A stretch of DNA of 64,000 nt, from assembly GCF_002775205.1 (NCBI RefSeq), contig NC_036451.1, positions 20,880,351-20,944,350 on the forward strand, written 5' to 3'. Position numbers and translations under genes: made by a program. Below are positions 13,284 to 51,973 of the stretch, one piece after another (position 1 is the stretch's first letter; every line of letters begins with the position of its first letter). The notes under the pieces were generated by a model. The model was given only the letters and a program-made list of their open reading frames with translations. It ran no database searches and was not told the DNA's origin. Origin of the DNA: Xiphophorus maculatus (lineage: Eukaryota > Chordata > Actinopteri > Cyprinodontiformes > Poeciliidae).

Positions 13284-18422
<5,139 letters not shown>

Positions 18423-25700: not shown

Positions 25701-28700
25701 GTCAAGAATGGCGGTGGCAGCATCATTCTGAGGGTTTGTTTTGCTGCCAGCAGCACCTCTGTGTTGCACAGAGAGAATGAAATATTGAAGAAAACAAACT
25801 GTCTTCAACATTTCATGTCTGTTTTAATGCAGGGGTGTCCAAAGTGAGGCCCGGGGGCCGTTTGTGGCCTTTTGAATGACTCTGTGCGCCCCTTGACCAC
25901 AATGTTGAAAGAAAATTTATAATGCAATTTATTAGCCAGGCTTCCACATTTATCTTAATCTTGAAAGAAATAGCCCACGTTCAACTTCCCAAAATTAGGA
26001 AACAGTATGCCTTTCTTTCAACAGCAACACTCTTTGTATGTTTTGGATCTGCAACGATTTCCTTCTTGTACAAAAGTCTCTTTTGTTTGTTTCATGAAAT
26101 TATTGCACATTTTGTTCACTATTGAGCAGATACGATAAATTAAAAAATCATTTTCAAGCTCAAAAGAAGACACCACTGATTCAAATCAACATGTAGATGG
26201 TTAAAACATCAGCTGGGTGTGCCAACAGGACATTTATTCCAAACACACATCAGAACTGGAACTTGGAAAGGAGAAGGAAGGCCAACATTAACATTTTGGA
26301 CCCCAAGTTCATTGAAAATTTTGTGAAAAATGTTCAACTATTCTGGAAACATCCAGCCAGAATGATGCCTGAACCCAGCCGATACGATTTTTGCAACTCG
26401 GCTCTAACTTCTTACCCGTGACGGTGACGAAGTTTTCATTCCCGTCCAGTCTGGCCCATCTGAGCTCGTCCAACATGTGCCCCTCCGGGTACCACTCCAC
26501 CACGGAGTAGGCGGGTGCAGCTTCAGCTTTTCTCCAGGAGATGGCGACAGTGTGGTTCCCCGCCGTTACTTGAACGTCAAGAATCGGCTTGGCTAAAAAC
26601 AACACACGTATGTATGTGATAAAAGTGAAGCTCTAGTTTCAGAACCATCAGATGAAGATCCGACAAGGTGTTCATGGTTTTTACCTGCTGTGTGGCGCGT
26701 TGTCATGGTTGCAGGAGGCGACGAGCCTTGAGAGTTCACAGCCTGCACCGTCACTTCGCAGTCGGAGCAGAACGGGAGAGAGCGGCTCTTCACGTCAGCG
26801 CTGACGTTCGTGACGACCGTCAGGTTGTTGCTGTTCACTCTGATGGCATACTGAACGATGCTCCCTCTGCAGACGGACATGTTGGACTCCTGAAACGTTT
26901 GGAAAACATTAACTTTAGCTCTGCAGGTGAATGCGTTCTTTGCCTCGGTGAGTGATTACTGTCGCCAAGGATTTACAGCCAAACCGCAAGATGAGTGTGT
27001 AAGACACATCATTTCTGTTCAGCTCCTCTTTTTCTTGTAAACTGAAACTGCGGTGCGTCTACTGTCAGGTTTCAGTTACCCCTGAGTGTGTGTGTGTGAC
27101 ATTAAAACACTCTAGGTGTGTGTTTTTAACTCTGTATTTGGCGATAGGGCGTTCATCTCTCTCTCTCTCCCTCTCTCTGTGCGTGAGGATGTCACAAGAT
27201 GTGGTCAAGGTTTGACCTTTAGTCTGTGCAGAACAAAGCAGGGAAGCAGAAAGAAAATGTTGCCATGGTTACAACACCGCGATCATGCAGCAGTGTGAGA
27301 ACAATGGAGATGTGAGAACCCTCAAACTCATGAGGCTCCAGTGAAATCTAACATGGACTTTTTATGTATGACGAGGAAACAGCATCCTCATCCAGAAAGC
27401 ACACACGCTTCTGAACATGTTTTTTTCTCCCTTCTGAATATTAAAAACAGATTCATAAAGTTTTATGAAGTAGCAGTAGTAAAACAAATACACCTAATCA
27501 AGACAAAACAAAAATGTACATATTCTCATGAGAAAGGATATGAATCTCTTAAGATTGGTGGCCATTTTTAAGGTTAAATTCCAATGTTTTCAGTGGCTTT
27601 CAATATATATATTTTTTTGGTATCTGGAAGCAATTTGTGTCCATAGCCTACATCTGGATGTGGAGGTCTATCATTATTAGAAAAATAATGACAGATTACC
27701 ATTGCTCTTTGCTGATCCAATTAGTAAATACCACCAAATAAAGCTATGGTTCTCCTTGATATAAAACACATCACATATAAATTAATTCAATCAATGAAAG
27801 TCGACATAAACCAAAATGCAGATCCACCTTTTGAGGTGATTCTAAACTTTTTTCACTCTGTGAGCGATAAATACATGCATGCCACAATATTTAAGATTTA
27901 TTTATTTATAGAAAACAGTGCTGTGCTTCCTGGTATTGGCTTACTTCTCTATATTCAACTCAATAATCAGCATTAAAGTTGGTTGTTGTGACATAAACAA
28001 AATGCGAAAACGTTCTGAAGACATGGGAGTTTTTTTAAGGCTTTGCAATGAAATACATCAAAGAGCAATTTTATGTATGTGTGTGTGTGTTTTGCTGCCT
28101 AAAACAAATCATTGTCCTTGAAAAAGATGTGTCATGCCTGGAACTGGGTCAACCAATCTACCTTTCTGAGGCTGTGACTTTTAGTTTTTCCTGTCGAGCT
28201 GCAATCATCCAGCACCTCAGGACTCGTCTCTACAAGTTTTCAGTTCAAACTTACATTCGCCTTATTTTTTTTTTTTGGTTATATCTGTGCAAAGGCCTAT
28301 GCTTTTTAAGGAGTTCAATAACTTACCTACACCATTTCAAACTACTACTACTACTAATAATCAGAAAACATAGAAAACAGGTAGTTTTCAACACTTACGT
28401 CCCAGTAGACTCTCATGGTTCTGAAGTCGGGGCCAGCAGCGAGCCACACATCCAGATGTTGGGCAGGAGCTTTAAAACCAAACATTAAAAAGTTACTTTT
28501 TTAACTCTCTGTTTTTAATAGATACCGGATAAATGTTTCTTGTAGACTTATGAATCTTCAAGACGTTCTTTTCTTGTGCTACATTCCTCGATACGTTTTA
28601 TTCACTAGTTGGTGACGAAAAGCTCAGACATCTTTTTTATTAAACTTTAATTCAATCTGATGCTTTCAAACTTCGCAGCTCAGCAAGTTACGACAATAAA

Positions 28701-31700
28701 ACACAGATCGCACTTCTGTTCTTGAGTCTGGCAATTTATTATGAATTATTATTTTTAGCAGGTGTTTATGACTGTGCAGCAAAAACAGGAAGGGATACTT
28801 TCGCACAGTTGGCAGCTGTGTTTGACGCCCCTCCACCCTGCTCTATGTTCAGCTGCGCTGTCTGCATTCACATATAAAAGACAGATTGCAAATGAGTTTC
28901 AGCAAGAATTCAACCCAGCAGTTACGAGCACAATCAAACTCGATTTGGCCTTTTTTTTTTTTTATTGGTCATTTTTTCAGGAGATGAACAAGACGTTTGC
29001 AAAAACTACAGAGTAAGAGACGCACGAGTAACAAGCCGCAGGCATACAGCGCAGACAGAAGCGCAGTGATGGGTGCAAATCCTCCTGGAAAGTTGCTGCT
29101 ATAAACTGCAATGTTCTTATTGTTTGATAGAAAATAATAACTTTGTCTTTTAGTCTTCAGGAGACTTCTAACCTTCTGTTTAGTAATCAAATGAAACAGA
29201 AATAGATTTGTTCGACTGCAATAATGCAGTCCTTCACATGGCGTAAAAATAAAATGAATGTAACCCAAAGAACACAATCTCTACGGTCAAGCAATGGTGG
29301 TAACATTACGACTTGATGGTGTTTTTCACCCAGTGGGGCTGGCATTAAAAAAAATACTAAATCTAAAGATTCTAAACAATAACATCAACGTTCGTCTGCA
29401 GAGAAACGTCGTCTCGGACAACAATGGACATTTCATCCTGATGACGACACGGCTACAGCGAGGAAACGGTCAGCTAGCAACTAACGTTAACATTTTGAAC
29501 GTGGCCCAGTTGTAGTCCTGGTTTAAATCTGAGCTAAAGATAAGGGTGTTGGCAAGGAGGCCTTCCAACCTCAAAACTCCTCACAAAGAACGAATGGTCA
29601 AAGATACCAACGAAGACATGCATGATTGCTGTAAAAGCGAATAAAGACTTGCCAGCCATTACTAAGAAGGGGATAAATAATTTTGAACATAGACTATAGA
29701 TAAAATGACAACGAGTTTTTTTTAACGACAGAGCCTTTTGTACTTTCAATGATGTTTTGGGAGAGCTTCGTCTTGTTTCCAACCTTAAGACAATAGTTTA
29801 GTTGATGAAAATAATTATATGTAAATCTCCTGGGGGTATGAATAATTTTGGCCTTAGCGGTGAAGGATCAGGGGGAAAACAAAACAAAAAACGATGGAGA
29901 ACAACATGAACTCAGCCCCACAAGGTGAAAATCAGCACACGACCTTCCTCATCAATAAAAAAGAGGAAGGCACCACAAACCGGTGCAGCTGATGTTTTCG
30001 ATACCTGCTCACTCAACATCGTTAGCGTTTTTCCGGAAGTGGAAACTGATGACATGTCACTGCTGCGTATTCATAGCTCATGCATTTTTATAGAGAGATC
30101 TCCATATCTTCACGCCATCAGAACTACAAAACACACACTTTATTTCCTATAAAACAAAGCTTTCCTCTTCACTGGCTTCCTTCACTCTCAACTGATGCAA
30201 GAGCGAGTGAAAACTAAATTCGCCCAAACCAATTCAATAAAATCTCAGTAGGGACGAGGCGCATCGGTCACCTTATCAGCTAGAGCGGTTATGTTCGCGA
30301 GATAAAACGGAAAAAAAACTTCTTTTTTGTCAGTCAGTGGTGATCTGATAGCTGCCTCACAAACCCAGACTTTAGGAAGCACTGCTGCACTGTCTGATGG
30401 CCTATATTGATACAGTTCCTGAGACATTAGCCTGCAGACAGAACGAGCAGAGCTTTAAATCAATATTGGCTTCAGACTCACCCTCTTCTTTAGTCGCTCT
30501 GGAGATGACTGAGCTCCACTCGCTCCACTGGCCGGTGCTGAATCTGGACCGTGCACTGAAATTGTACACACTGCAGGGCTCCAAGGAGGAGATGTGCTTG
30601 GCCTCGAATGAAGTCGTCAGTCCAGCCTGCAGGCGATCGATGCACACAACGTTTCTGATCAGCTGTTTGAGTTCAGCTGAAGTACATTTCAAACATTTTG
30701 CTTTTTTTGAGAAAGGAATTTGAGGAGATCTTCGAAGCAGGGTTAGATTGTTAAACAACACCCTGTGATTTTTCTTTTGGAGCACTTTGAAACCCATTCC
30801 ACAAAAATATCTATACCCTGAAAATGCACAGGGTACCAGCATCATGCTGGTACAGCTGGTCAGGGTTGAGGTGCAGGTGCGTGACGATAGATTCACGGCA
30901 ATCCTGGAGAAAATAAAATCCAATTGGACGCTGGAAAATACTTGAGGCTGGGGTGAAGGTTCATCTTCCAGGAAGGCAATAACTCCAAAGATACAGCCAG
31001 AGCCGCAATGCAATTGCTTATGTGAAAGTACATTTATGTTTTAGAATAGCCTAGTCAAAGCCAAATAGTCAAACTGTGGCAAGGCTGGTCTCCATCCAGT
31101 CTAACTGAGCTTGAGCTGACAGCAATGTACCAACAAAGACTCGCAGCTTTAGCTGTTGTGGAAAAATACAAATGAACAATTTTTGACTTTTGAGTATAAA
31201 AAATTTTCCTCCCACTGAATAATTATGCACTACTTTGTGGTTATCTATCACTATCACATCTTTTCATCTGTCATGGTTTTGTTTTTTTACTTGATGCAAC
31301 AAAAAAAAAAGAAAAAAAAAGCTGAAATGACTTGAATACGATTTTGATGGGCTTCTGTTGATGAGCAAAACGCACAAAGGAGCCTGAAAGGTCAAAATTT
31401 CAGCTTATTCCTGAGACAGGTGAGTCATCTCAAATTCACTTCTTCACACGTCGACCGAGAGACTCATCTCTGCCTCCAACTCTGAATCAGCAGAAGCTCA
31501 GAGCAAGACAAGTTCAGCAGCCAAACATATTCAAAGACCTGAAATTGCCTTTTGCAATTTCTGCGCCTCACTCAAAATCCCCCCTGAAAAGCTTTCAGAG
31601 AGTCGAGGGTTGGGGGAGTTAAAACTTCTTACAGAGTCTGGATAAGTTGTCCAGTCCCGCTGGCGCTTGTCTTGGTACTGGACCTGCAGATGCGGAGTCC

Positions 31701-34348
31701 AAGCAGGCTGTTCCACTTTGATGGTGCAGTTCCTGGAAGAGCACTCGACTTGATCAATAACGGGCGTCGATGGCATCACTGCTCGGATCAGAACAAAGTA
31801 ATGGGACGTGTTACGATCGAAAAGTAATAGCAAGATTTACAGGATTATGGTGCAAAGGGGGTTGAGGAATGAGTGACTGGAAACGATTGCTGGTGACTAG
31901 ACGCGCTGTGGATTCATCTGTGCAGAGCCGTACCTTAACAACAAGCGCTCAAAGTCTTACCGATGTCACTGAGGTTGTAGCTGACGATGGAGGATTCAAC
32001 AGAACCCAGGGAGTTCAGGGCTTGAATCTGCACCGACATGAGCTGGACAGATCTGGGCAAAGTGAAACAGGCAGACGTCGACTCAGTCCCCTTGCGGTAC
32101 ACGTTCCACACCAGCCGTCCCGTTTGGTTTCCACTTGAAGTTCCAACCCTGCAGCCCACAGAGCAAAGTTTCAGTTTAAAAACATCTGCACAGCTCTAAC
32201 TTTTACAAGCAGAATAATGTGGGAAGAGAGCGTTCTCACCGCACCACGAAGCTGTTGTCAAGGTGAGTGTCCCTTCCTCTGTCCCAGGAGCAATTCACAC
32301 TTCCGGTATCATTTTTGAGGATCCTGTAGATGCATGAGATGTTTTTGGGCTTATCTGGTGGGTCTAGAGAGGAAAGGAGACAAACATTGCTTGTGAATGG
32401 ATATCCTTACAGAACCGGATGTAGTTAAAAAAAAACAAAAAACCCCACAAATTTATGACTAATAGAATCATTTTTCTCTGTTTCAATGTTCCGTTGATCA
32501 AACTGTCTGATTGCATGTGTGAAAACAAACAGCCACCCTACTTCAGCCAGAAAACAACAATAATCTCCTAACGGTTTGTTATGAACTGTGTGTCACCAAG
32601 CAGCAAAGAGAAAGCAGAACAAGCTTTTTTTTTTTTTAACAGGTTACTAAAGTTAATCCCAGTGTAGGTCAGGAAAGCTTTATGTGAACATGTTCTGCGG
32701 TTCTTCCAGAGAAGATTAAATGTAAACAGGAAACAAACTCAGCTGTGTCATGTGCAATAAAACTGCTTCATCAAGAAACTCATCTCAGCCAAATAAAACG
32801 CCCCACGTACATCCAGCTAAGATGTCCAGTCCACAGGCGTCCAGCGGTGGGTGGCAGTCGGACGAACAGCTGTATGTCCTCTTCTCCGTAATGTTCTCCA
32901 CCCTCAGGAATATGGTTGTGTCGTTGAGCCGTTCGTGTGTGGATGTGATGTGGCTGTCGATGTACATGGATCTCTGGGTCCTACATCTGGGGAGGAAGGT
33001 GCAGTACACCACGAAGTCGGAGCCTCGCTGCACCACGGCTCCGGCACTGGACCACAGCACACAGGACGTCCCCTCACCTGCAAGCAGGGAGGCTCGTTAT
33101 TTCCTCAGGACTCTGGAGAATGGACGCACTTCTACGTTTTGGACACATCAGAAGAACCCTGGTGAAATATTCACCTTCTATTGCACATCAGGCGCGTCTC
33201 AAGAAATTAGAATGTCTTTTAGTCTGACTGTGCTCGGGGTTTCTTTTGCATGAATTACTGTATTAATGCGGAGTGGCCTGTGGCTCTGTTCAGGAAGCCC
33301 AAACCGCTTTGATGGCAACCTTCAGCTCGTCTGCGCTGTTGGCTCTACAGTTTTACGTCTTCCTCTTGACTCTATAGTGGCAGGTGGGTTTTTAGGTCTA
33401 CAAAGTATTTGTACTTTTGTCAGTGTTGGAAAGTGTCACGTCCAGGTGGAACATAAAAGCAGCATCTCCAAAAAGCTTGTCAGTCGAGGAAAGGATCAAC
33501 ATTTTCCCAATGGACAGCGCTAATTCTGGACTTGATTAAAAATAAAATAAAATCAGGCGTTGTTAACTTCTTTCTCTCAGCTCTCCCTCGCCACAATCTG
33601 GGGTTCTTAATTTTTTTAATCAAATGCAAAATTTACTTTCTTTAGAAAAGAAAAATCCACTTAGCCCAGGTAACTATATTTTACATCTTGTTCATATCTG
33701 CCTACATTTGACAGTTTCCTCCCATGTCATCGCTACGTCTGTTTGGTGGTGTTATTGTGTCACAGCAGGTAGAGCAGTTGTCTTGAAATTGGAAAGTCTG
33801 TCTTCCTTCAGTCACATGTTGATGTGCCCTTGTGCAAGGCACCAAGTCCCAGGGTGTTTGTGTGTGTGTGTGTGAAATGTAAACTCTGACACCAAACATA
33901 GAGTACCTCTCAAACTAAATAGGATCGATGCAATGTCTGTTTACGGTGGTTTTGTTATTTTTGTACCTTTTTCTTCTTCCACTAAACTTTCCATCTATAT
34001 GCTTGGAAACAACACTCTGTGAACAGACAGCTTTCATTCACAATGACCTTTTGGCTTGGCCTCCTTGTGGAGGTGTCAATAGCTGTCTAAAAGGTAACAC
34101 AGCAATCTTCCCAATGACTGAGGAGACCATCATTTTTTTTTTTCCATTAAAACTCAAATTACAAATGTAAAAGTTTGAACCATAAATTTATGAACTCTTT
34201 AGATAAGTGTAATGTTTTTTTATTTATTGAGATGAGACGCCCCAGACTGTTGAGTTATGTTTACCATGCGTATATGGGGTTTACCTGCGCACTGCTGCAC
34301 GACCAGCAAGGCAACCGCGACGACCGTAACAGACCATGAGAGGAACAT
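22766..34348 (-). CDS. il12rb2: Interleukin-12 receptor subunit beta-2
   Basis: Signal-transducing chain of the IL-12 receptor (gp130 family, class I cytokine receptor), paired with IL-12RB1 and JAK2/STAT4. Fifteen exons from the start: 34348-34285, 33077-32811, 32363-32240, 32148-31961, 31778-31633, 30662-30482, 28469-28399, 26889-26685, 26592-26416, 25525-25424, 25291-25145, 24749-24624, 24393-24297, 23404-23317, 23227-22766; 814 residues (human 862). It reads signal peptide MFLSWSVTVVAVALLVVQQC, an Ig-like exon, then five two-exon fibronectin domains. Domain 1 has CIYRILKNDTGSVNCSWD; domain 2 ends with QWSEWS. Then come the helix LMCVFVTVMVLFTLCLW, box 1 VVPDPANSKWAKE and a 153-residue tail. 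The tail end FFPSLSILMEPVGF..KLTLDAVKIDC matches the human IL12RB2 terminus, which fixes the identity. The human STAT4 site GYLPSNID is not seen; candidate tyrosines are TTYIKSL and VDYISSHG. Introns hold Tc1 relics and microsatellites. Confidence 0.93.
23790..23908. repeat. (GAGT)n tetranucleotide microsatellite in il12rb2 intron
   Basis: About 29 nearly perfect copies of GAGT/TGAG, ending in GCGAGCGAG variants. It lies between the transmembrane and box 1 exons. Confidence 0.95.
24191..24223. repeat. 33-bp near-perfect palindrome in il12rb2 intron
   Basis: CTAAAATGACAAAATG (24191-24206) is followed by a single T and then its exact inverted copy CATTTTGTCATTTTAG (24208-24223). It ends 74 bp from the donor of the transmembrane exon. 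Confidence 0.9.
25600..26390 (+). mobile_element. Decayed Tc1-like transposon interrupted by a hAT-like insert
   Basis: The left part (25600-25829) encodes NVKNGGGSIILRVCFAASS, resembling the GGGSIMLWGCF core. The right part (26190-26380) resembles the sequence for FQQDNDPKHTS and beyond (GTTAAAACATCAGC, CCAAACACACATCAGAACTGG). The two parts are separated by the element at 25830-26178. Heavily mutated. Confidence 0.65.
25830..26178. mobile_element. hAT-like non-autonomous element nested in the Tc1 relic
   Basis: The left end CAGGGGTGTCCAAAGTGAGG with GGCCCGGGGGCC is the usual start of a common fish hAT-type repeat. A right end reading AAGACACCACTG could be its degenerate inverted partner. 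Flanking 8-bp duplication is not convincing. Confidence 0.5.
29290..29860. repeat. Possible Tc1-like relic
   Basis: The tail GGGGGTATGAATAATTTTGG near 29835 resembles the end of a fish Tc1 element, and AAGGAGGCCTTCCAACCTC near 29555 resembles part of its transposase region. Weak, based on memory. Confidence 0.35.
30740..31290 (+). mobile_element. Decayed Tc1-like transposon 3' half in il12rb2 intron
   Basis: GGTTCATCTTCCAGGAAGGC with the following CCAAAGATACAGCCAGAGC corresponds to the FIFQQDNDPKHTAR stretch. CCATCCAGTCTAACTGAGCT corresponds to the SNLTELE stretch. The tail around 31215-31255 (ATTATGCACTACTTTGTGG) is the usual 3' flank of this family. It lies directly upstream, in the transcription sense, of the exon carrying WSEWS. 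Confidence 0.75.
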
Positions 34349-37709: not shown

Positions 37710-40700
37710 TCAAGTGTCAACGTCAAGGGAAGCCACCTGTGGGAAGTAGCCACCGTTCAGGAACATGCGAGCTGAAAACGGAGAGGAGCAGGTATCATCT
37801 GAATCGAGAGCCTCTCTCTGATCCTGCTGCAAATCCAGAGAAGAAACATTGTTCTCCGTGTCTTCCTGCGTTCTCGGAATCTCTTGCAAGCAGACTCCTT
37901 TCCAGACAGACGTTTCAAAGGTTTTAGGCCACAAAAGATCCCCGGTAGAGCCAAGAGTGGCCCAATGAGACGAATTAGAGCAATCCATGTTGGACAGGAA
38001 GCCTCCCAGAAATCCTTCAAATCCAACCAAAAGCCTGTCTTCCTCTGCGTTTTCTGGATGTTCCCGTTGCTCCTCCCTTGCATCCTTGATCTCCTCGTCA
38101 AGCGGAAGCAGCGCAGCAATCTGAGGCTTGTAGCCGGTGTGTTCAACCAGAATGGTTCTGGGGAGCGACTTCGCCTGTCGGGCTCCGTCCGGGGACTCTT
38201 CCACGTGGATGCTGGGGTACGCTTCGTCCCTCTCGTCCTGGGAGACCACGAGGATCGGGGAAAGGGTCGGGTCACTGTCGGTGAAGGAGAAAAGAGGCTC
38301 ACTTCTGTCGTCCTAAAGAAAAGAAAACAGCAGGAAAAAATGATTGACAAATATTGAGTTATCACTACAAGGCAAATATGTTTGTTGGACAAATGCACAT
38401 TTTATAAACATTGAGATCTAGAAGGGCAAAAGAGACCATTAGCAATGGTTTCTCTTCCTGTAGCGTTGTTCTATAGGTTTAATATTAGAATAATCCTTAA
38501 ATGGCACGAATTTGCAGCTGTTGTAGCTGCTGGCTGTCTTAGGTGCTAATACATCCAGAGTTGATTACCTCCAGCAGCCTGATGGCGTTGCTGTGCCCTG
38601 GTTTGGGCAAGTTGTCCACGAGCCACTCAGGTCCCCATGCTATACATTTCTGTTTGATCCTACAACAAAAGAAGAAATAAGATTTATTTTTTTGGATACG
38701 CAAAGTTGTATAACTTTGTTTTATTGGTCTGAATTGACAAAGTTAAACACAGATTACTTCAAAAAGTGTTCAAACCACAAGCATATTCACGTTTTGTCAC
38801 ATATCAGCCACATATTATATTTCATTAGCATTTTGTTTTAAAGGCCAGCATAAACTAGCGGAAAATTGTGAAGAGGGAGCAAAATCATGCATGCTTTCAA
38901 CATTTTGTACAAATAATATCTGGACACTGTTGTTCAACTCTCTTTTACTCTCATACCCTTAAATAAAAAAGGCTCCTCGTGACGCTGAAGGAGCTGCATA
39001 GATCACTGTTATCTTGTTGTCAGAAGGTTCTGGGTTCTTTCTGCACGGTGTTTTCATGTTCTCTCTGCGCATATGTGGATTATCTCTGGGTACTCCAGTC
39101 CAAAACTGTGCATGTCAGATGAACTAGCTACTCTAAGTTGCCTTTTGGTCTCGACCATGTGCGTATGCATGCTCATCTGTCCTGTGTTCTGTGTTGCAGT
39201 TCAGCTCAAGGCTTGTTCACGTGTTAGAATGGCCTAATTAAAGGCCATACCGTAAGCCTATTGAGAATCTGTGCAATCTGACTGAGATTGGAACTATGTA
39301 CAAAAAAAAAGAATCCACAAGAATGCGCTTTTCGTTGCGATTACGTGGGTCCAATATTTTGTGTCGGTTTAAATTAATGAAATCCCATTGAAACACACGG
39401 AGGTTTGTGGTTGTGACGTGACAATATGTGGTTAAAAGTGCAAGTGGAGCCAAAGCTTCTGCAAGGAAGCGCACATAGATGCTAATGTCATGACTAATGA
39501 TGCAGATAGCCAAATAGCAACATCGGAATGAGGTTTAGGTTTCTGTTCACTACAACCAAGTGGGTTTTTACTCATGTTGCGGTGTGGTTTTTCACTAAAA
39601 ATTAACCACAGGGTCCTCCATCCCTTTTACTCGTAAAACAAAACTTATGAACGTTCAAGCTGCAGGACAAAAAGCCGAAGAAAAAAACGACGCCAGCTCA
39701 GACGTTTGTCTAGTAAAATGACTGAGGCTTTCTGTGGAAAAGGAAGCTTTTCTTTTTGTAAAATTACCGTTTCCTCACACAGCTCCAGCACATCAGGTTG
39801 GCTACAATTGCTATGGAGATCGTAATGCTGAACACAATCGCAATCACCAGCCCCACTGTAAGAGATTTAAAGAAAAAGTCATTATTTGGATGAATCCCAG
39901 ACTCAGAACCTTATTTTTCCGTACTGATCAGGTGAAATTAAGACTATGTATGTAAAGATTTTATATATGGTGATATTTTGCGACTAAAGATAGAGAAAAT
40001 GTATTGACCTGCTGGAGCTGGAGGCTGAGATAAGGTCTGTCTCCCTCGAGGCCCTTCTCCTTCTGAGTTCGATGCAGTCAGCTGAAGGGACAACGTTCCT
40101 TCTGGACAGTCCAGCCACGTCTGTCTTTGGCCAGATCCAGACACTGTCACTGTGCAGAAGAAAACGACAGTTAGCTTTTTTCCCATCCTGCAGAATCAAA
40201 AGAGTTTCTTGCTTGATTGCTCAACTTAAACCACTGCAGCTGTTTTTCGAGCTGTTTTTTTTTTTTTGCACGAAAAACAGCTCAGCCTAGAGCAAAGCTT
40301 TTTGAACTGAAAGTCAGCATTGGCTGCTGCTTGATATGCCCAGTGATGCAACTTGTGTATCAGCCTTGAGAATATTGACGTGGAGTGTTTGAAGGGTATT
40401 CAACTCACGGGCTTTGCATTGTGCTGCATGCCAGCTTGAAACAGTGCAAAGTTGACCCAAAAGGAAAGGAAAATGATACATTGTTTGCAAACTTAGGGTT
40501 AGATGAGAGAGCATAGGTTAGGGGTGTCCACAGTCGGTCTTCAAGGGCCGGTGCCATGCATGTTTCAGCTCTCTCTCAATGTTCTGCAGAGACCTCCTAA
40601 TGAACCATCGCTTGATTCAGATGTGTTGGAGAGAACGACAAACATGCAGGACAACTTTGGACACCTCTGGCATAGGTTATTCATGGACCAATCAAATTAG

Positions 40701-43700
40701 AAATCGAATCTCACAGATGCTCTTATGCAAACTCACTAAGCTGTTTTGTCAGGAGGAACAGGCAAAAGTTCTGTTTTCTAAACGAACAAAGCCCCAAAAG
40801 ACTCACGGCTGTAACTTTGGCAATAAGTGTTTGATGCGTGACAAAATCTAAAAAAGTTGAAAATACATAAATACTTTTGGCTCGGCAAAGTCAGCGGTCA
40901 GTAGTATTTACCCTCTGCTACTGAGTGTATTCTGTTTGACGTCAGAGACTCGTACTGAAACTCACATGAAGTGTAGGAGAGACGAACATTTGCAGTCAAT
41001 ACTGACCCACAGACTGTAGGCTGAGGAAGCCGCACGGTTCTGCATACTGACTAAACCAGTTTCTGTTCTTACACCCAGCCAAAAGTCAAAGTTACCTTTA
41101 AGAGCTGGATGCAACTTGGAAGTCCAAAAAACAAATGCTATCTTTTTTGAAACTTTGCTATATTGCATTTGAAGACAAAAAAGGAGAAAGCAAAAATAAC
41201 AGTTAACCTGAAAAGATATGATGTTGCGTTTGTTGTAACTAATCATCAAGCCCCATGCCTGGATCCAGAAACCCATCCAATGACAGCCAACTGATTGGGG
41301 ATTAATGTGTGCATAATGATGCCATTTAAAAGTTTCTGTGCACATGTACAAGTTAAAATAAACCAGGCAAAAGGAAAAACCTGCAAATAATATTCAGAAG
41401 CAGATAATTAATATAGAGTACACCAGAATCATTTTGTGCAAAAACCCTCAACCAGACTAACGGCGAAAAAGACAACACAGATCATTCAGCGAGCACATGA
41501 CACTTTAGAAAGAGGAAAAGGTATAAGCTCTGAGGAGCTCTCATAGTCAGGCCCTACAAATACAGAACCAGGCGGGCTAGCTGGTAACAGCCTCTTCTGA
41601 CACATGTGCATGAAGCCACATGGCTTCCTGTTTTGCGGTCAGAACGAGTTCGAGGAACCTCTAAAGATTCTCCTAAAGCGACATCAACTCGTGTTTGGCT
41701 CCAGTTTCTTCACTACTGAAAATCTTCTTCAAATGTCAAAAACACTGGATTGTTTTGTTGTTTTTGTGAGCAGATGCTGGCTTTGATGTTAGGTTGCTAT
41801 GTGTGTGTGTGTGTGTGTGTTTTTTTGCGCTTTGAAAGAGTGATTAGCAATAACAGAGAAATAATAATTTGAGCTCCACGTCTGAATTTCTTTTCGTTAC
41901 GGGAAGCCTGAGCGAAAAATACCCTGCTGATGCACTGAAACTTCGAGGGAGGGGAATATCAATGGATTGCCACTTGCACGCTTTCCATTTTGTAAGTGTG
42001 GTTTGTGCCGAGACGCAACGCATGCGAACTGCTGAATGTATAATTCACCACACCTGTGCACACACAGGTGTTAGGAGTTTGCCTTTGCTTGAGACCAAGG
42101 TGAAGTACAAGGACACACACACACGCACAAAAAATTTTTGCTGTTACAGGAGGGGAAGGGCAGGCTGAAGCGGTGATGAGCAAGAACAGGAAACTCACTG
42201 CAAAGTTGTGTTTCCTCCCACACTTTCAAACCAACATGGAGCTTTATTGTGAATGAGAGGCTCCACTTAATTTCAAGGTCAGATATGATCAAGTTGTTGT
42301 TATTTTGGAAAAAGGATTTTCTTTTCCTCAAAGTCATTCAATGACTTTCTCCAGACTGCAGGGTAAACCGAGTTTGAAAATATAGCAGCGGTTTAAACAT
42401 GCTCAAAATCCTTAGTAGTTTTCTTTATTTTATATGTAAAGATGTGCCTTCAGTATAACTTTTTACTCATTTGTTTATCCTTTCAATTTTAGTACAATAA
42501 ACTGGTTCTACTATGCTACTTTAGAGTACAATCCCTTAATAATGTACACATTATTTCCTTCATACTTTAACTGCATAATCTTGTAGCTTCAAATAGAAGT
42601 CTGGTCATGCAGAGCATTTGAGAGTAATCATTAACTTACGCTATATTGCCACAAGTATTCATACAGATGTGAATTTGATTTAAAGACTTATTTTTAATCA
42701 CCGGGGTTTAATATGCCAGCCCCCATGTGCTTTCTCTCCCACTTTTATATGTTTTTGATCATTTTTGACCTTTTGTTCCAGAATCGCATTTGTGGGGTCA
42801 GACACTGATGTTGGATGAGATGTCCTAGCTTGCGGTCTCCGCTTTAATTCATGCCAAATGAATGTCAAGGCACGTTGAAGCATTACGGTTTCCTTTCACT
42901 GGAACTTCAGGAAGCCCAATTCCTGAAAAAGCTGACAATCACCCTACTTACCTCAAATCTTCACACCTGAGACAATGCAGTAAAGCAAGTGGTGTTACCC
43001 TGGCAACAGCTAAATCCACACTCATCCACTGGATCGTCATTAGCACTGTGCTCTAGAATCTACTGGCATGCCTTACATCACCACATCTGACGATTTGCGT
43101 TTCCCTTGGTCAAGTAGAATATGGATGCAGCTGCTTGGCCATGAAAACCCAGGATAGAAAAGTATAGTACTATTTGATTTCAGCATTTTAGGTCTGGATG
43201 AGTTTTAAAAAAAGAAAATTAGCGTGCATGATGGAATAAATAAAGATCTGACTACTCTTTGAAAATTGAGTCTGTGAAAGTTTTCAACTTGACAGCTTTG
43301 CAGGAACCCTGTTGAAAGCTTCTGCACTTTTAAATGCTACAAAATAAGATGTCTACTTTGGAAAGCAAAGAGGCAACACTGCAAATAAAGGGCGTGAGAG
43401 ATTAAGAAGACTTAAAAACGCACAGCCGGCAGTAAACCGAACAAGATGAAAGAACTGCCATGAAGACATGTGAGAGGAAGTCTCGGGTCTATCTACAGAC
43501 TTGATGACACAGAGCATAGAGGAAGTTGTTGAATCAAAATAACTCATCAGAACATTATCCAGTTCAGACAATCTGTAAACAATCAAGAAATCTACAGAAT
43601 ACTAGGTTACAGTTTTTGTTTCTTACTGTAAACAGAAAGGCCAGATGAAACAAATACATAGCAAAAGGAAGGAAGGAAGGAAGGAAGGAAGGAAGAAAAG

Positions 43701-46700
43701 ACTTGTGGTTGTAAGATTCTTAAAGAAGCACGGATCAACATGTTGAACAAGCTCAAAGGAGAGGTTGTCCAAGTCCAGTGTGGATGATGCAATACTTTTA
43801 AAACACAATGTTATATTTTATCAACATGAGAAATGTTGGAGTAGGTTTTGTATATGACGCTTCAATGGCTTTAATAAATTGGTATTCATGGCAGTAAGAC
43901 AACTTAGAGCAAATCAGTAGCTACTCTGGTCAAAATCGCTGATATATTTAAACATGAACATGAAATTGCTTTCACTTCATTTAGTGGAGGATTTACTGAT
44001 GCTGCAAATAAAACATGAGCTACAGCAGCTTCCAAAACCGTTCAAATCCTTTGCATCTCTGCACATTTGGTCCTAATACAGTCAATAAACATCAGAGCAT
44101 TTAAGTCAATATTAATGTGACAAACCACAAAATAGTGTAAAGTTAAACAAAAAGGCCGTTGTTTTCATATTTCTTTTCTAAAGACACAAGGGAAATCTAA
44201 CTTGGATTTGTATTTGGGTCTTGTAAATCAATACTTGATTTACTAATTGTAGATTTTGCCTACACTTCTTTGTAAAATAGCTCTAACGCAGTCAGATGGG
44301 ATTGAAAATGTTCAAATCTTCGCAGAGCCTCAGCTGGATTTAGGTCTGGACTTTGGTTAGGTCATTTTAATACATGAATATGCTTTGACCCATAGCTCTG
44401 GCTGTATGTTTGAGGTGACCTTCAACCCCAATCTCAAGTCCTTTAGTCAACTTTTCTTCCAGAATCGCCCTGTATTTTTCTCTATTTAATCTTCCCAAAA
44501 TCTTTGAACATCTCTCCTTTCCCTATTGAAAGGAATCATGCCCACAGTATGATGCAACCACCACTATGTTTAACAAAGGGGATGGTGTGTTCAAGGTCAG
44601 ATAAAGTATAAGTTTTCCATCACACATGGCAAAAACATACATTTTGGTCTCGCTTGACCCGAGCACCTTCTTTCATGTTTTTCCCAACCTTGTTTGTAGC
44701 AAACTGCAAACAGACCTTCTTATGTCTTTCTTTAAAAAAAGTAGAATCATCTATCAAAAGGCCAGACTTGAGAGCTATTAATAGTTCTCTTGTTTGAAAA
44801 GTTTCTCATGATGTGTTGTTTGTATGTTTGTATTCTTCCTAAGTGCTCACCGTTGAGCTCTGCGCTGCTGGAGTCCAGTGTATGCAAGTAGACAGTGTAC
44901 TTTGAGATGAAGCCTCTCCGTTGGTCCACGGGCAGCTCGTCCCACCGGACCAGGACCCGTCTGGCCTCACGGGTCAGAACATGGAGCACGGGAGCTGAAA
45001 GTGGCCCTGAAGCAAACACGCATGGACACAATGATTAGAGAATGGTTGGTGCAGACTGTAAAAAAAAAACAGAAAAGCTGTCTGCTTTACTCTGTTCTCT
45101 GGAGTAGATCGGTGTGGATGTTGGAGCACTGACGCCTCTGGTGGTCACAGCGTACAAAGACACGTTGTACCTCACACCCGCCATCAAACCTGAAACAGAG
45201 TGTGAAGATGAAACCCGCGCTGTATTCTGAAAGCAGGCAGCTTACTTCACTATGTCTGGTTTGTGGGTGTGACATATTATGCTTCCTATACGGTATGATT
45301 AAGGCAAAAAGACCTAAAACTAATTATACTGAACAACGGCCACGCGAGGGCGCTGTTTGACCGCTTTTAAAAGCCACACTGTGATCTGCTGATTTATGCC
45401 AGAAAGTTCTCGAAAAGCGTGGTTAGATGTCTTACGGTGGCACACCGCAACTAAAAGCGACAGCATAATTTTTATTATAGGGAGAGGTAATTTTGTGAAG
45501 ATTAAGAAATGACAGAAACATGAATAAATATATATATAAGTTTATATAAGTGTTGTCTGGTCAACAATTCCTTTTCTCATTCTAATCTAATATGTATTTT
45601 CAACTATTCTTATTGTAATTTGAACAAGTTATTCAAATTTTCATAAAAGAAAACCACTACAAATTTGAACCCAGGACCTTCTTGCTGCAGGGCAACAGTG
45701 TTGCCAACTGCCCCACTGTTCAGCCCTCATTATTATATTGTTCATTAATCCAAAAGTATTTGCTTCAAGTGTTTACCCTTGCTTATATTTTTCAGTCTTA
45801 CTTCAGAGAAGAAGTCATACATTGTCTTTGTTTGAGTTGAAGTCTATGTTGAGTCAAAAAGGCAGCCTCCTCATTTTAGTTGCATATTATCCTCTGAGTT
45901 TGTTTTTAATGGTTAATATAAATTTAACTTCAGACAAATCCAAGAGCAGTAAAGGTAAGAAGGAAAATCTATTTTTTAAAATGTCTCCACAAGAGCAACT
46001 GGTGAAGGACTTTAGGATTTTATAGGAATATTTCCTTATTAACTTATCTTCACTTTGCCCTATTTAAGGTATTTGGAGGTGAAGAAGCATATCCAGAAAA
46101 TTCATAAAAATATGAAATGTGTCTTATTTTAGCAATAAATAAATGCATGTGTGTGAATGAATGACTATACCTGTGATTGTTGTGTCTTTCATATCTCTAG
46201 GCACCTTTTTCCATTGCAGCCCCGTTGCAGGCATGCTTTCCCATTCTACTACAAAGTACAGAAGACCTGTCTGAACCGTCGTAGACCAGGAGACCCGAGC
46301 AGCGCTGCCGTCTGAACTAGGAGCAGACGGCAGCGCTCCTGGTGCTGAATCAAAGAAGGATTCAGAAGCACCTAAATGATCGAGACATTTGAGTGATTAC
46401 CACAGAAACGTAAAGTATTAGAAACATTTCGTCCCTTTTGTGTAACTTTATTTGCACCTGCATGTCTGAGATCTGCAAAAGCCGGCGGAGACGCCCCACT
46501 GGAGGTCACTGCACTGACGTTCAGTCCAAGAACCGCCACTGGTGCCTGGACTGAACACTGGCTGGAAGCGGCAGGACAGATCTCCTCCCGGCCATCATCC
46601 AGGACGATGCTGTACCGCAGCAATTCACCACTGTAATCCTCCACAGGCAGAGGCTGGGAACAAGATCATTTATCAAATTGTTAATGCATGTGAAATACAT

Positions 46701-49700
46701 ACTTCCACCTTCCCAACTATTACAGGAGGAAAATTTGAAAATTAATTTAACAATCAAAAAATAACTTAAACATAAAAATCCAACATTTAGCCTAATTATA
46801 TGGATGTTTGGAAGATTATCAGCAGAAAATATCAATACCTTCCAGAAAACAGTAACGCTCCTCAGCCCGGGTTTGGCCTGGTCTCCTAAGCGTCTCCATA
46901 CATGCAGCTGCTGAGACGGACCTGTTGGAACGGACGCAGCATGAAGTTTCTCTGCCAGGTGTCACACAAGAACCACTTTCACTCCCTTATATTTCAAATA
47001 TCTCATTCTTGCCTTTTCCAGGACTCATCCTCTTCACAGACGGGCTCCATTTGCTGCAGAGAACTCGCTGGCTGGTTTTAAAGCTCGTGGCTTGTCCTGA
47101 TGCGTAGGAACACGCTCTGATTTGGAACTCATATTCAGTCTCAGGCTTTAGGTTCTCCACTAGTATCAGACCCTCGCTCAGCTCTGCTCCCGCTCTCTGC
47201 TCCTGAAAGAGTGCGGGATGTTTTTAGGTTATTGCATGAGAAGATTTAAAACAAGAAAAACTGCAAAGTCAACATGACGCCGCTTTACCCAGGTATTGTT
47301 TCCTCGCAGCCTGATTTGGGATCTGAGGCGCTTCGAAGACTCAAAGGTTTTCCAGTGCAGCATGGCTGATATGGAGTCATTCATGAACTCCACCTTAACT
47401 ACGTGAGGGGTTTCTGGTATCACTGAAACATAAAACAACAATAAGGCGATCTGAACAGGCAATGGCAAATGTGCTAAAAATAAAAAATACAGATTTAAAG
47501 GCGTTCGCAACTTTTGCAACCACAAACTTCAACATGTGACAGAGCAACACAAAGTAGTGCACAATTGAGAATTGTTAGAGAAGGAAATTCAAATAAATGG
47601 TTTTCACAAATAAAAATATGAAAAGTGGGATATTACATTTCTATTCTGCCTCTTTATCCAGATACCCCAAATATAATCCTGCACAACCACTGTTTTCAGA
47701 AGCCACCTGTTTAGCATATAGTGGACCTGAGTGAGATTTAATCTCAGCTTAAATCCAGAATGTTCTACGAAAGCCTCAGAGGTTTGTCAGAGAACATTAG
47801 AGAATAAGCAGCAAACAAAGACCTTGTTTGCAGTTTTCCCACAAGCCATACAGGGGAAACAGCAAAGAAGGGCCAAAATGTATATTTTTTTTGCGTACAT
47901 GAAATACTAAAAAGTCAAGTAACGCTATGAGAAACCTGCAGAAGACTTGAAGCTAGGAGCAGGCTCACCCTCCAGCAGGTCATCAATCCTTGACACGGTC
48001 AAATTTAGCTGATCATATTGTGCCAAAAGGTGAAAACTCTCTATTTATTGAGTTTTGATTAAAAATACAAACACACTATAGTTTTCAGATATTTATTTGC
48101 CAAAAGCTTTAAACCCAACACATAATTTTCTTTCCACAATGTTGCACTACTTTGTGTAGGTGTATCACACACCTACTATCCCGACAAAATACACTGACGT
48201 ATGAATCAGCTCTGTAATCTATTGAACAGCTACTGTCGGTGAACTTGCTAAAGTTCAAACGAGGCATGCAGTGGGCAGGTGGCAGAAAGAAAGAAGAAAT
48301 TGTCCCCTTGTGACATACATTACAAAAAGAGAAACTTTACTGAAAGTCAAATTAGTCAGACTCAGGAGAAAACAACTGATTGAACTAACCACTCGACATA
48401 TGACTCAGCCTTTCAGCGGTGATGATTCTGATTAATTAATTCAAATGAACAACTAGGTTAATGCACTCCCATTGAATGAATGTTGAAGCGTTACCTATGT
48501 CTGCCAGAGAAAAGATGAACGGGTCCGACCTGGACGCTCCAAAGCGGTTGTAAGCGGAGACGGTCAGCGTGTATTTAGTGTTTTCCTCTAAGATTGCTCG
48601 TGGTACGCTGATTTCCTCCCCGTCCGAGATCAGATCTAAAACGCTTTCATTCTCCCTGATAATAAAAAAGGAAAGGAAAATTAGGCCACAAGCACATGCT
48701 GACTAAAGCAAATAGGAAGCAAATCTCTATACCTGTGGACTGAAACGTTGTAGAATGTGTCGATGTACGTTTCCTGTCCTCTGTCCAGTGAGCAGTTTAT
48801 CAAATCAGAGCTCCTTGTTGTTCCACAGTTGATATTTGCAGGCTTGTCAGGAGGAACTGTAGTGATATAAAAAACCAAGAGAATGTTTCTTATCATCTGG
48901 AAGCGCAAACAAATGTTTAGGACTAATTTGTGAGATAAGTTTAGCATCTGCTCTGCACTCACAAAAAAATCCCCCAATCCAAACATGATGTGTTGGCTTC
49001 ACTGCAGCTTTCACCCAACGGCATTTTTAAGGATCTAGCTCTCTTTTAATCGAGCAGCAGATAATGTAGAAAATGTTCAGCTCCATCCAGGTCATCATAC
49101 AGCGGTCAGATTTAGCTGATCATATTGTGCCAAAAGGTGAAAAGTTATCTAAGGGAAGCCAAGCTGTCTGCATTTGAGTCACTGACTTAGCAGCAATCCC
49201 TCCTCCTCAACAAGCATGAGGCAGCAGTGGGGAGTAACAACTCCCTTAAACGGAGGAGAAACCGAATAAACGAGGCCATCTGTAACAACTCTGCACTAGA
49301 TTAAAGCGGTCTAATATTTCACAAGAGAAAGTTATCAGTACAATGCAAAATTACTGAAGGTTTTTTTTTTCTTTAGTTTTTCACTCATTTTCAATTCAAC
49401 TTAAGGCGTTTTAGGTTGTTTTTTTTTTTTGCTTCGTCATTTTCTTTGACCCACAAAATATGAAATAAAAAAGGTGATTTCTCACAGCGGTAATAGATGA
49501 ACTCACAGCATAACCGAGAGAAAGATGATAGATCTTTCAGGTTCAATATTTTAGAACAAAATGAGTACTAAAGCAGACCCTGAAAGAAAAAAAACTAAAC
49601 AAATTTTTGCAATTTTGTGAGACAAATGTAAAGCCGTTGGGACTGATTTAAAAGTATTGCCCAGAAAATTATTAAGTAATGCAATAAGTTAACAAGTAAT

Positions 49701-51973
49701 GCAATAAGTTAACAATTAACTGTTACTAAAATGTGATTCTAGCAATAGTTATTACAACTGCATATTCCAGTTATTTCAGACTGGATTATACAATCGCATT
49801 CAATAAATTAACATATGTGTTCCTCTGGGAGTTATTTGTCAAATACAAGATGCCTTTTTGAAAACAATACTTCTCATTAAATCCACATTTCTGGATTAGG
49901 AATGTCTTTCTTAATGGTCAGGCGTAAAATGCTGATCGTGTTTTCATTAGTTCTAAGCCAAAAGTCATCATAATTTACAAAAATAAAGTTTTGAAAACAT
50001 GAGTGTGTGTGCACTGATTCCAGATAATGTGTTTTCTGAATTGTAAATGAAACACACAGTGAAATATACGAGCTTTCCAATATTATTCTAATTTATTGAA
50101 CATGAGTGTGTATAAACAAGCTAATAAAATGATCATTTTTGAGCAGCCACAATGAGGTTCTGAAATGGAGCAGTGTATACTTTATTACTCATTCCTTCTC
50201 AATATGGTGGCTCAACATGCTTTAGTGCGCTACAACCAAACCGTATCTTGGTTTAGTATTGTTTAATAGGCAAAATTTAGCTGAAGGTACATTTAAAAGA
50301 TTCCTGTAAAATTTGGTAAAAGCTTATTATTCACTCTACAAAATACCATATTTTTAAATAATATAAAATTATCAGTCTATTATATATTTTTTTTAGCGTA
50401 ACTGCACTGTGAGAGAAGATTAAAATAGTTTCTCCCCTGTCCCACACCTCCTTCCCGACCCGCCCAGGCATACGTACGTCCAAGACGTAGATCTAGGCCA
50501 CAGATGATTTCCAGAGCAGGCAGCTGGCTGCTCTTCATCTTGCAGACCGCCTTAGACAGCGGCTTGGACACGCGGGTCAGGTAGAATGCCGTTGTGGTGC
50601 AGTTGACTCTTTTCGACAGATTCACAGTCTGTTTATTCAGGTCCAGGTACATCTTCAACCTGAAAGTCAACAGTAGAAGGCGGTTTTTTATATCTGAAGG
50701 TATCATTTCAGAAAAACAATGCAGAATGCTGCGTCTAAGTGCACAAAGGAGCGTTATAGGAGATCCTTCCTCACGGTCTCTGTTAGACAAACTCAGTAAA
50801 TGTTTACATCCTTGATGTTTTTTGTACATCTCTGTTAGTTTCTTATATTGTAAATAGTCTGTTGTCTTTTAATGAACAAACACACACACACACATTATAT
50901 ACACTAAAAAAATGTCCTACTCAGCTGCATATTACTTGGATCAGAGTACTTGATAACTGCACAGTACGTTTAAGTTGTGATCATGTCCTCAATTTATTAT
51001 TTGGGCTTATATATTTTGAATACTTTTTTAAAAAAAATCTTTGTATGAACCCATATGCTTTAGTTCTGCTGCTAATCCTGAATTTTCCCACTGTGGCATA
51101 ATAAATTACATTTCAGACACATTTTCTATTGAGTGTTTGCAAGTCCAGTGAAAACATTGCAAAGTAAGCCTGGTTGATGACAGCGAAGCTAGTGTCTGAT
51201 GTGTAGCCCAGGCGATGATGCTTGAAGTAGGTGTCTGATTTAAAGCCTGGCTAACGATGCTGAACTTGGTGTCTGATTCTGGGCATGACAAGTGATGCCG
51301 AAGCTACGGATAATCAAATCTGATCGCATTTGGTTATCTGTAGATATCTAGACATGGTTAAACAAAAACCATACTGTTCTATAGAGAACAGAGATGCTAT
51401 AATCACATTTTAAGAAGAATTTACAATGTTTCTCCTTGTCACTAAGACCACCCCTGATCGTGAGAAGCCTGAAAAGCTGAATATGCAGCCAGGTCATCCA
51501 TAAAGTCCTTTTTATGAGGCACAGGATGAGTGATGAGGAGGAAGGGGCTCCCCCCCCCCGGGTGGCATTCTTGCCAGATCCGCCACTGTAAAAACATATA
51601 TGTTCTGCATTCGTCAAAGTTTCAAAGCAAATATGCTCACTCCTTTTCACATTTGAAGGTGTGGCAGTACACGGTCAGGTTTGAACCCATGAGCAGGACA
51701 GTGGCCGGCTCTGCTGTCGCATAGCCGCTGGAAATGAGGTCCATACAGCCTGCAGGGAGCAGAGGGCAGCCTGCGCAAGAAAAAAAGAACCCTTTGAAAA
51801 TTCAGAAACAAGACTCAGCTTCTTGCATGCTTATTCTTTTTTTTTTGTCAAATGAAGACTTAATGAGCAACAGAGAAGAACGCATGGATGGCTTTGTGGA
51901 CGAACAACTCACCATTGATGGAAAAACAAAACAGCAAGATAATGCATCTCCAACTGGCTAACAAGAGATTCAT
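37710..51973 (-). CDS. il23r: Interleukin-23 receptor with full gp130-type ectodomain
   Basis: IL-23-specific receptor chain signalling through JAK2/STAT3. Sixteen exons from the start: 51973-51913, 51770-51641 (or from 51749), 50659-50478, 48856-48733, 48655-48495, 47422-47289, 47202-47013, 46921-46839, 46653-46458, 46344-46171, 45189-45091, 44994-44851, 40149-40009, 39855-39768, 38659-38569, 38312-37710; 866 or 859 residues. It reads signal peptide MNLLLASWRCIILLFCF, Ig-like region over two exons, five fibronectin domains, helix VGLVIAIVFSITISIAIV, the box 1 region WLVDNLPKPGHSNAIRLLE and a 200-residue tail. HTGYKPQIAALLP and GGYFPQVASLD supply two YxxQ STAT3 docking sites and match human IL23R, as does the WLxxxxP box region. 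Unusual points: the WSXWS site reads CSKWS, the usual CxW of domain 1 reads CSL, the donor at 47013 is probably GC, and three fibronectin domains are present that human lacks. All phases agree. Confidence 0.9.
39190..39460 (+). mobile_element. Tc1-like transposon fragment in il23r intron
   Basis: CACGTGTTAGAATGGCCTAA, then AAGCCTATTGAGAATCTGTG, corresponds to the VLEWPSQSPDLNPIENLW stretch. GAGGTTTGTGGTTGTGACGT near 39400 is the 3' flank of the same family. Confidence 0.7.
40519..40669. mobile_element. 151-bp hAT-type MITE with perfect 8-bp target duplication
   Basis: The element starts TAGGGGTGTCCACAGTCGG and ends CAACTTTGGACACCTCTG, terminal inverted repeats of the CAGGGGTGTCC type. The 8-bp sequence GCATAGGT occurs immediately on both sides (40511-40518 and 40670-40677), the size expected for hAT insertion. 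The inside is a rough foldback containing CATGCATGTTTCAGC against ACAAACATGCAGG. It sits in the long il23r intron before the transmembrane-proximal exons. Confidence 0.85.
41799..41826. repeat. (GT)n microsatellite in il23r intron
   Basis: Uninterrupted GT run followed by T7. Confidence 0.9.
42638..43170 (-). mobile_element. Tc1-like transposon relic, second family, in il23r intron
   Basis: The left end reads ACGCTATATTGCCACAAGTATTC, a terminal repeat typical of one teleost Tc1 family. The minus strand at 42698-42883 encodes IWHELKRRPQARTSHPTS then VSDPTNAIL, resembling LWDELERRLRARPSRPTSVPDLTNALL at the transposase C-terminus. The part at 43020-43160 resembles another section of the same element, so the middle is deleted or rearranged. 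Confidence 0.75.
43661..43697. repeat. (GGAA)n microsatellite
   Basis: About eight copies of GGAA in the long il23r intron. Confidence 0.9.
44030..44750 (-). mobile_element. Tc1-like transposon relic in il23r intron
   Basis: TTGGTCTCGCTTGACCCGAGCACCTTCTTTCAT near 44645 corresponds to the complement of the transposase SDET region, and CAAACTGCAAACAGACCTTCTT near 44700 to the part before it. The left part (44040-44180) resembles the usual flank of this family. Transposase would be on the minus strand. It ends 100 bp before an il23r exon. Confidence 0.7.
47490..48190 (+). mobile_element. Internally deleted Tc1-like transposon in il23r intron
   Basis: Both flanks are recognisable: AACCACAAACTTCAACATGTGACAG with AGCAACACAAAGTAGTG on the left, and TTTTCAGATATTTATTTGCC with GTTGCACTACTTTGTGTAGG on the right. 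Between them AAAGCCTCAGAGGTTTGTCAGAG represents the leader of the family, while nearly all transposase sequence is missing. It contains the segment repeated at 49103. Confidence 0.7.
49090..49290. repeat. Dispersed repeat in il23r intron
   Basis: ATGAGGCAGCAGTGGGGAGTAACAACTCCC with AAACGGAGGAGAAACC resembles a common teleost repeat. The left edge (49103-49143) is nearly identical to 47996-48036. Confidence 0.5.
51169..51305. repeat. 38-39-bp tandem repeat, about 3.5 degenerate copies
   Basis: The core GTGTCTGAT recurs at 51192, 51231 and 51269, each preceded by a GATGATGCT-GAAG-like stretch (units begin near 51169, 51207, 51246 and 51284). It lies in the il23r intron between the two Ig-domain exons. 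Confidence 0.8.

What the first reader, a model, noticed from the sequence alone, without database searches (positions are those of the whole stretch)
37710..51973. Teleost il23r keeps three membrane-proximal fibronectin domains that human IL23R has lost
The gene is identified as IL23R by its two YxxQ sites in the same contexts as human (GYKPQI and YFPQ), by its box 1 region and by its place next to il12rb2. Human IL23R has an Ig-like domain and two fibronectin domains only. Here five fibronectin domains are encoded by ten phase-consistent exons. The simplest reading is that the ancestral form was gp130-like and the short form is derived in the lineage leading to mammals. It also implies a taller receptor in fish.
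Basis: partly seen in the sequence, partly recalled or inferred. Interest (0 to 1): 0.75.

Follow-up and report, generated by a model that had tools for sequence, protein, structure and literature searches.

The report
Tall fish IL-23 receptor gene
This fish gene encodes an IL-23 receptor that still carries three extra outer protein modules missing from the human receptor; the gene looks intact, but the basic difference was already published for zebrafish in 2007.

Summary
The minus strand 51973-37710 holds an open 16-exon coding model, 872 aa, every exon in phase: signal peptide, Ig, five FN3 domains on ten exons, TM, long tail. One junction, D3/D4, needs a GC donor. The ectodomain aligns collinearly with IL12RB2 (E 3.2e-39). 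Identity as il23r rests on the Ig domain, two YxxQ sites (GYKPQI, YFPQV), spacing equal to human R381-W395-L396-I400-P401, and il12rb2 next door. Against: a seven-sequence D1-D3 tree did not resolve IL23R from IL12RB2, D3 alone leans to IL12RB2, and the neighbour's D1-D3 also ranks IL23R first.

The main claim is not new: Liongue & Ward 2007 (PMC1963337) reported that zebrafish il-23r has FBN domains that mammalian IL-23R lacks. They reported no TM in zebrafish; this gene has one. Extra detail: D4-D6 is an 876-base, six-exon, frame-neutral cassette, where sheep has one 90-base stalk exon; the counterpart of human Y397 is valine. When the loss happened could not be tested here. Well supported, already known; interest modest.

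The parts
51913..51973 (-). first coding exon: signal peptide MNLLLASWRCIILLFCFSIN
   Evidence: ATG, open frame, donor ATG|GTGAGT 8/9; hydropathic N-terminus; no signal-peptide program run
51641..51749 (-). Ig domain (D1), first half; an acceptor 21 bases upstream is an alternative
   Evidence: in phase; D1 raw score 103 to IL23R against 71 to IL12RB2
50478..50659 (-). Ig domain (D1), second half
   Evidence: in phase; aligned to IL23R 6wdq
48733..48856 (-). FN3 D2 of the cytokine-binding module, first exon
48495..48655 (-). FN3 D2, second exon
47289..47422 (-). FN3 D3 of the cytokine-binding module, first exon
47013..47202 (-). FN3 D3, second exon, with degenerate WSxWS (CSKWS); ends at a GC donor
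46839..46921 (-). membrane-proximal FN3 D4, first exon (83 bp, phase 1 to 0)
   Evidence: collinear with gp130, LIFR and IL12RB2; no Pfam match alone
46458..46653 (-). FN3 D4, second exon
46171..46371 (-). FN3 D5, first exon
   Evidence: Pfam fn3 2e-9 for D5
45091..45189 (-). FN3 D5, second exon
44851..45006 (-). FN3 D6, first exon
   Evidence: collinear with gp130 and IL12RB2; no Pfam match alone
40009..40149 (-). FN3 D6, second exon, after a 4701-bp intron
39768..39855 (-). transmembrane exon, including R640, spaced like human R381
   Evidence: top hydropathy window 612-631; numbering from PMC12849345
38569..38659 (-). juxtamembrane exon with WLVDNLPK at 654, counterpart of human WLYEDIPN; the Y397 position is V656
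37710..38312 (-). cytoplasmic tail exon with GYKPQI (Y733) and YFPQV (Y861), stop included
22766..33077 (-). neighbouring il12rb2 (partial model: D1-D3 joined, parts of D4-D6 and tail read; start exon and D4 first exon not found)
13272..18317 (+). serbp1/habp4-like gene beyond il12rb2 (two exons read, no full model)
   Evidence: Pfam IHABP4_N 3.1e-23 above, and 2.2e-4 below, its cut-off

Best explanation
This is the fish orthologue of IL23R, a single-pass class I cytokine receptor of gp130 topology: Ig, two-domain cytokine-binding module, three membrane-proximal FN3 domains, TM and a tail. Shown from sequence: a complete frame-consistent coding model, the domain order, a TM stretch and the signalling motifs. 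Inferred: the Ig domain and D2-D3 bind an IL-23-like cytokine with a partner chain; D4-D6 act as legs that hold that complex off the membrane and bring the tails together; a JAK is activated through the juxtamembrane WLVDNLP region; phosphorylated Y733 (GYKPQI) and Y861 (YFPQV) recruit STAT3. The counterpart of human Y397 is missing, so that SHP2/ERK arm should be weak or differently wired. Mammalian IL23R is the derived short form: the D4-D6 cassette (876 bases, in frame) is gone, and one 90-base stalk exon joins D3 to the TM exon in sheep.
For: Open 16-exon model. Collinear match to IL12RB2 over residues 24-610, E 3.2e-39. For D1-D3, four IL23R chains are the top four of 34 hits (89.6-91.5 bits), then IL12RB2 (83, 78.1), then gp130 (53.6). 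D1 raw score 103 to IL23R against 71 to IL12RB2. D4-D6 hits LIFR, OSMR, gp130 and IL12RB2; none of the 60 rows shown of 68 is IL-23R. YxxQ at Y733 and Y861; human Y484 and Y611 mediate STAT3 phosphorylation according to PMC12849345. Spacing of R640-W654-L655-L659-P660 equals that of human R381-W395-L396-I400-P401. Beside il12rb2, as reported from zebrafish to human (PMC12162339). Zebrafish precedent (PMC1963337). Sheep exon 8 is 90 bases and its skipping removes 30 aa (PMC4748472).
Against: The D1-D3 tree leaves the four IL23R/IL12RB2 rows unresolved and has long branches. D3 alone is nearer IL12RB2 (97) than IL23R (64); D2 hardly discriminates (90 against 97). D1-D3 of the neighbouring il12rb2 also ranks IL23R first (79 against 70.5 bits), so that ranking is a weak orthology test. 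The best full-length hit is IL12RB2, not IL23R. WSxWS is degenerate. PMC12162339 suggests that teleosts might lack p19 homologues, which would leave the ligand open. No transcript evidence: one junction uses GC, and retention of that 91-base intron meets a stop after eight codons. No binding was tested.
Confidence: 0.86

Rival explanations
1. The gene is a second il12rb2-like paralogue, not the il23r orthologue, so its FN3 domains are expected and say nothing about IL23R.
For: Full-length best hit is IL12RB2; D3 is nearer IL12RB2; the D1-D3 tree is unresolved.
Against: Tail motifs GYKPQI and YFPQV and the WLxxxLP block with human IL23R spacing; D1 nearest IL23R; another gene with a different tail lies between it and the serbp1-like gene.
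Confidence: 0.07
2. Ancestral IL23R was short, and fish il23r gained D4-D6 from the adjacent il12rb2 by unequal exchange or gene conversion.
For: The genes are tandem neighbours on one strand.
Against: D4-D6 is not specially close to IL12RB2: LIFR, OSMR and gp130 score as well or better. IL12RB2, gp130 and LIFR align over the part. The fish's own il12rb2 D4-D6 was not compared, because its D4 first exon was not found.
Confidence: 0.04
3. The genomic exons exist but the main transcript skips D4a-D6b, giving a human-like short receptor (580 aa).
For: The cassette is 876 bases and skipping it keeps frame; the boundary at D3b is a GC donor.
Against: The six exons are open with usable splice sites and FN3 content like that of related receptors, as expected of exons kept by selection.
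Confidence: 0.05

Closest known systems
Zebrafish il-23r (Liongue & Ward 2007, PMC1963337)
   Same: FBN domains as in IL-12Rb2; conserved synteny with il-12rb2
   Different: The 2007 zebrafish model lacked a TM domain; this gene has a TM stretch, a juxtamembrane block and a tail with two YxxQ sites
Human IL23R (PDB 5mzv, 6wdq, 8oe4; tail as described in PMC12849345)
   Same: Ig + D2 + D3, TM, two STAT3-site tyrosines, WL....P juxtamembrane block
   Different: Human has a short stalk instead of D4-D6; human Y397 is valine here; WQPWS there against CSKWS here
IL12RB2 (8odz) and gp130 (8d82)
   Same: Collinear over D2-D6, and for IL12RB2 over the Ig domain too
   Different: The neighbour il12rb2's juxtamembrane stretch aligns poorly to WLYEDIPN (13 against 26 for il23r); the gp130 tail was not compared

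Membership tests
IL23R orthologue | N-terminal Ig domain plus two-domain cytokine-binding module, closest to IL23R | tested here: inconclusive
   D1-D3 top hits IL23R 89.6-91.5 bits against 83 for IL12RB2; D1 nearest IL23R, D3 nearest IL12RB2; tree open; the neighbour also ranks IL23R first
IL23R orthologue | two membrane-distal YxxQ STAT3 sites | tested here: met
   Y733 GYKPQI, Y861 YFPQV; 56 of 10000 shuffles have two or more; human Y484/Y611 role from PMC12849345; the human letters around them are recalled
IL23R orthologue | juxtamembrane WLYEDIPN-type block with R381 spacing | tested here: met
   R640, W654, L655, L659, P660 at the human spacing; Y397 position is V656
IL23R orthologue | adjacent to IL12RB2 | tested here: met
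   il12rb2 at 33.1-22.8 kb on the same strand, serbp1-like gene beyond it; adjacency in other species from PMC12162339; human gene order with SERBP1 recalled, and the neighbour's naming by its tail rests on recalled human IL12RB2
IL23R orthologue | binds an IL-23 p19/p40 cytokine with a partner chain | not testable with these tools
   needs protein or cell assay
Class I Group 2 (gp130-like) receptor | Ig + CHD + FBN domains + TM | tested here: met
   topology as defined in PMC1963337
Class I Group 2 (gp130-like) receptor | WSxWS in the second CHD domain | tested here: inconclusive
   reads CSKWS, first W replaced by C
Class I Group 2 (gp130-like) receptor | classical Box1/Box2 | tested here: inconclusive
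   read by eye only: no gp130-like VPDP block (recalled) in the juxtamembrane exon; human IL-23R is also reported not to use classical Box1/Box2

The most novel reading that the evidence does not exclude
Fish Il23r is a tall, membrane-spanning receptor that keeps both STAT3 sites but lacks the Y397 SHP2/ERK site, so the mammalian receptor changed twice: it lost a six-exon, frame-neutral leg cassette and acquired the ERK-activating juxtamembrane tyrosine. Fish IL-23 signalling would then be STAT3-biased, and alternative skipping of the cassette could still give a short form today.
Probability: 0.25. Interest if true: 0.45.

Novelty: already known. Interest (0 to 1): 0.3.

Why it matters
IL-23/IL-23R is a major drug target in psoriasis and bowel disease (background knowledge), and its three-domain ectodomain is short for its family. 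A complete fish gene with TM and tail gives a usable outgroup: it marks which exons were lost, shows that the loss needs no frame change, and lets one test whether leg height or the Y397 site alters signalling. The core fact was reported in 2007, so the gain is detail and a correction for this fish (a TM is present), not discovery.

Tried and rejected
Stalk as relic: I tested whether the mammalian stalk exon (30 aa; sheep from PMC4748472, human from 8oe4) is a remnant of one of the six lost exons. No support: of 20 comparisons (two stalks against six fish exons and four D4a controls) the lowest shuffle p was 0.075 (sheep stalk with fish D4a); human stalk with fish D4a gave 0.96. The 83-base D4a and the 90-base sheep exon share position only; not claimed.

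D1-D3 phylogeny with seven sequences: unresolved, with long branches. Reciprocal test with the neighbouring il12rb2: did not discriminate. D4 first exon of il12rb2: looked for by eye, not found. Structure prediction was not used: the tool takes proteins read letter for letter from the DNA, and this one is spliced. Other vertebrate il23r genes: none of the collections offered is described as holding vertebrate genomes, and none was searched. The gp130 row is a fragment without box 1 and is not used. Ten literature searches (one search returned none); I opened eight papers and saw only listings of the rest. Among what I saw, PMC1963337 alone states the FN difference in teleost il23r; the library lacks most subscription journals. 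Of PMC12162339 I saw abstract, outline and passages, with no FN count for teleost IL23R in them. PMC8573258, PMC10659771 and PMC6795676 (passages) added nothing on this. In PMC4748472 the skipped TM exon is called exon 9 in the results and exon 10 in the discussion.

Full report
What is there. On the minus strand, 51973 to 37710, I rebuilt a 16-exon coding model from the raw sequence by splice sites and frame. It gives 872 aa without a stop. The order is signal peptide, Ig domain (two exons), five FN3 domains (ten exons, two each), transmembrane exon, juxtamembrane exon and tail exon. The introns after the Ig domain and after each FN domain are phase 1. 14 of 15 introns are GT-AG; D3b to D4a uses a GC donor that matches consensus at 7 of 9 positions. 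Phase-keeping GT donors inside D3b exist but match at 5, 4 and 2 of 9 and would shorten D3. A second acceptor 21 bases upstream of the first Ig exon is possible. TM and signal peptide were read from hydropathy (top window 612-631) and from the gp130 alignment, which runs through the TM; no dedicated program was run.

Is it more than chance. phmmer against PDB chains aligns residues 24-610 with IL12RB2 at E 3.2e-39, and gp130 over 76-650. D4-D6 alone matches LIFR (9.6e-17), OSMR (2.6e-15), gp130 (best 1.2e-13) and IL12RB2 (2.4e-12). Pfam fn3 finds D2, D3 and D5 as single domains, only D5 above the curated cut-off, and misses D4 and D6.

Which receptor. IL23R chains lead for D1-D3, but only by about 8 bits over IL12RB2, and the neighbouring il12rb2 also ranks IL23R first. 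A seven-sequence tree separates the four IL23R/IL12RB2 rows from gp130 and LIFR (95/95) but does not resolve inside them, and warns of long branches. By domain, D1 favours IL23R clearly (103 against 71), D2 hardly discriminates (97 against 90) and D3 favours IL12RB2 (64 against 97). The tail decides: Y733 in GYKPQI and Y861 in YFPQV, and a juxtamembrane block WLVDNLPK at 654. PMC12849345 (abstract part and passages seen) says that human Y484 and Y611 mediate STAT3 phosphorylation, that WLYEDIPN around Y397 is indispensable, and that JAK2 does not bind through classical Box1/Box2. With its numbering, R381, W395, L396, I400 and P401 have fish counterparts R640, W654, L655, L659 and P660 at the same spacing. 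The Y397 counterpart is valine, and the tail from residue 642 on has three tyrosines (704, 733, 861).

Surroundings. The same strand carries il12rb2 at about 33.1-22.8 kb, named from its ectodomain relatives and from a tail that I recall as IL12RB2-like. Of eight further ORFs scanned, six matched Pfam: two pieces of a serbp1/habp4-like gene (one below cut-off), a tyrosine kinase, a short-chain dehydrogenase and two pieces of a cytochrome P450; the il12rb2 tail and a second kinase-side ORF matched nothing. That IL12RB2 is nearly always beside IL23R from zebrafish to human is from PMC12162339 (passage). The same paper suggests that teleosts might lack p19 homologues, so the ligand here is not settled.

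How the short form differs. D4a to D6b is 876 bases, a multiple of three. In sheep, exon 8 is 90 bases and encodes 30 aa of stalk; the next exon is 106 bases by the coordinates given (PMC4748472, passages). So one exon stands where the fish has six. A search for a relic of the lost exons in the stalk gave nothing significant.

Prior work. Liongue and Ward 2007 (PMC1963337; abstract, outline, passages and one whole section read) state that zebrafish il-23r has FBN domains as IL-12Rb2 does, that mammalian IL-23R lacks them, that synteny is kept, and that the zebrafish sequence lacked a TM. PMC6238376 (passages) places a cartilaginous-fish IL-23R with tetrapod IL-23R. I found no other statement on FN number in teleost il23r in the listings of ten searches and the eight papers opened.

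Verdict. Observation confirmed; interpretation supported in its main line but already known. Added here are a complete TM-bearing model in this fish, the exact frame-neutral cassette, and the missing Y397 counterpart.

Noticed in passing
38569-38659 (-): The position of human IL-23R Y397 (SHP2/ERK, JAK2 activation in PMC12849345) is valine in this fish, inside an otherwise similar WL....P block.
   Followed up: partly
46922-47012 (-): 91-base GC-AG intron between D3 and D4; if retained, the frame stops after eight codons, giving a soluble Ig-D2-D3 form.
   Followed up: partly
50660-51640 (-): The Ig domain of il23r is split by a 981-base intron, while the Ig domain of the neighbouring il12rb2 seems to sit on one exon.
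   Followed up: no
47013-47202 (-): WSxWS motif reads CSKWS, and an insertion of about ten residues precedes it relative to the other receptors aligned.
   Followed up: no
26950-30400 (-): No first exon of FN3 D4 was found by eye in the neighbouring il12rb2.
   Followed up: no
60767-62528 (-): Cytochrome P450 exons upstream of il23r (Pfam p450).
   Followed up: partly
23791-23916: GAGT microsatellite of 31.5 copies, probably inside an il12rb2 intron.
   Followed up: no
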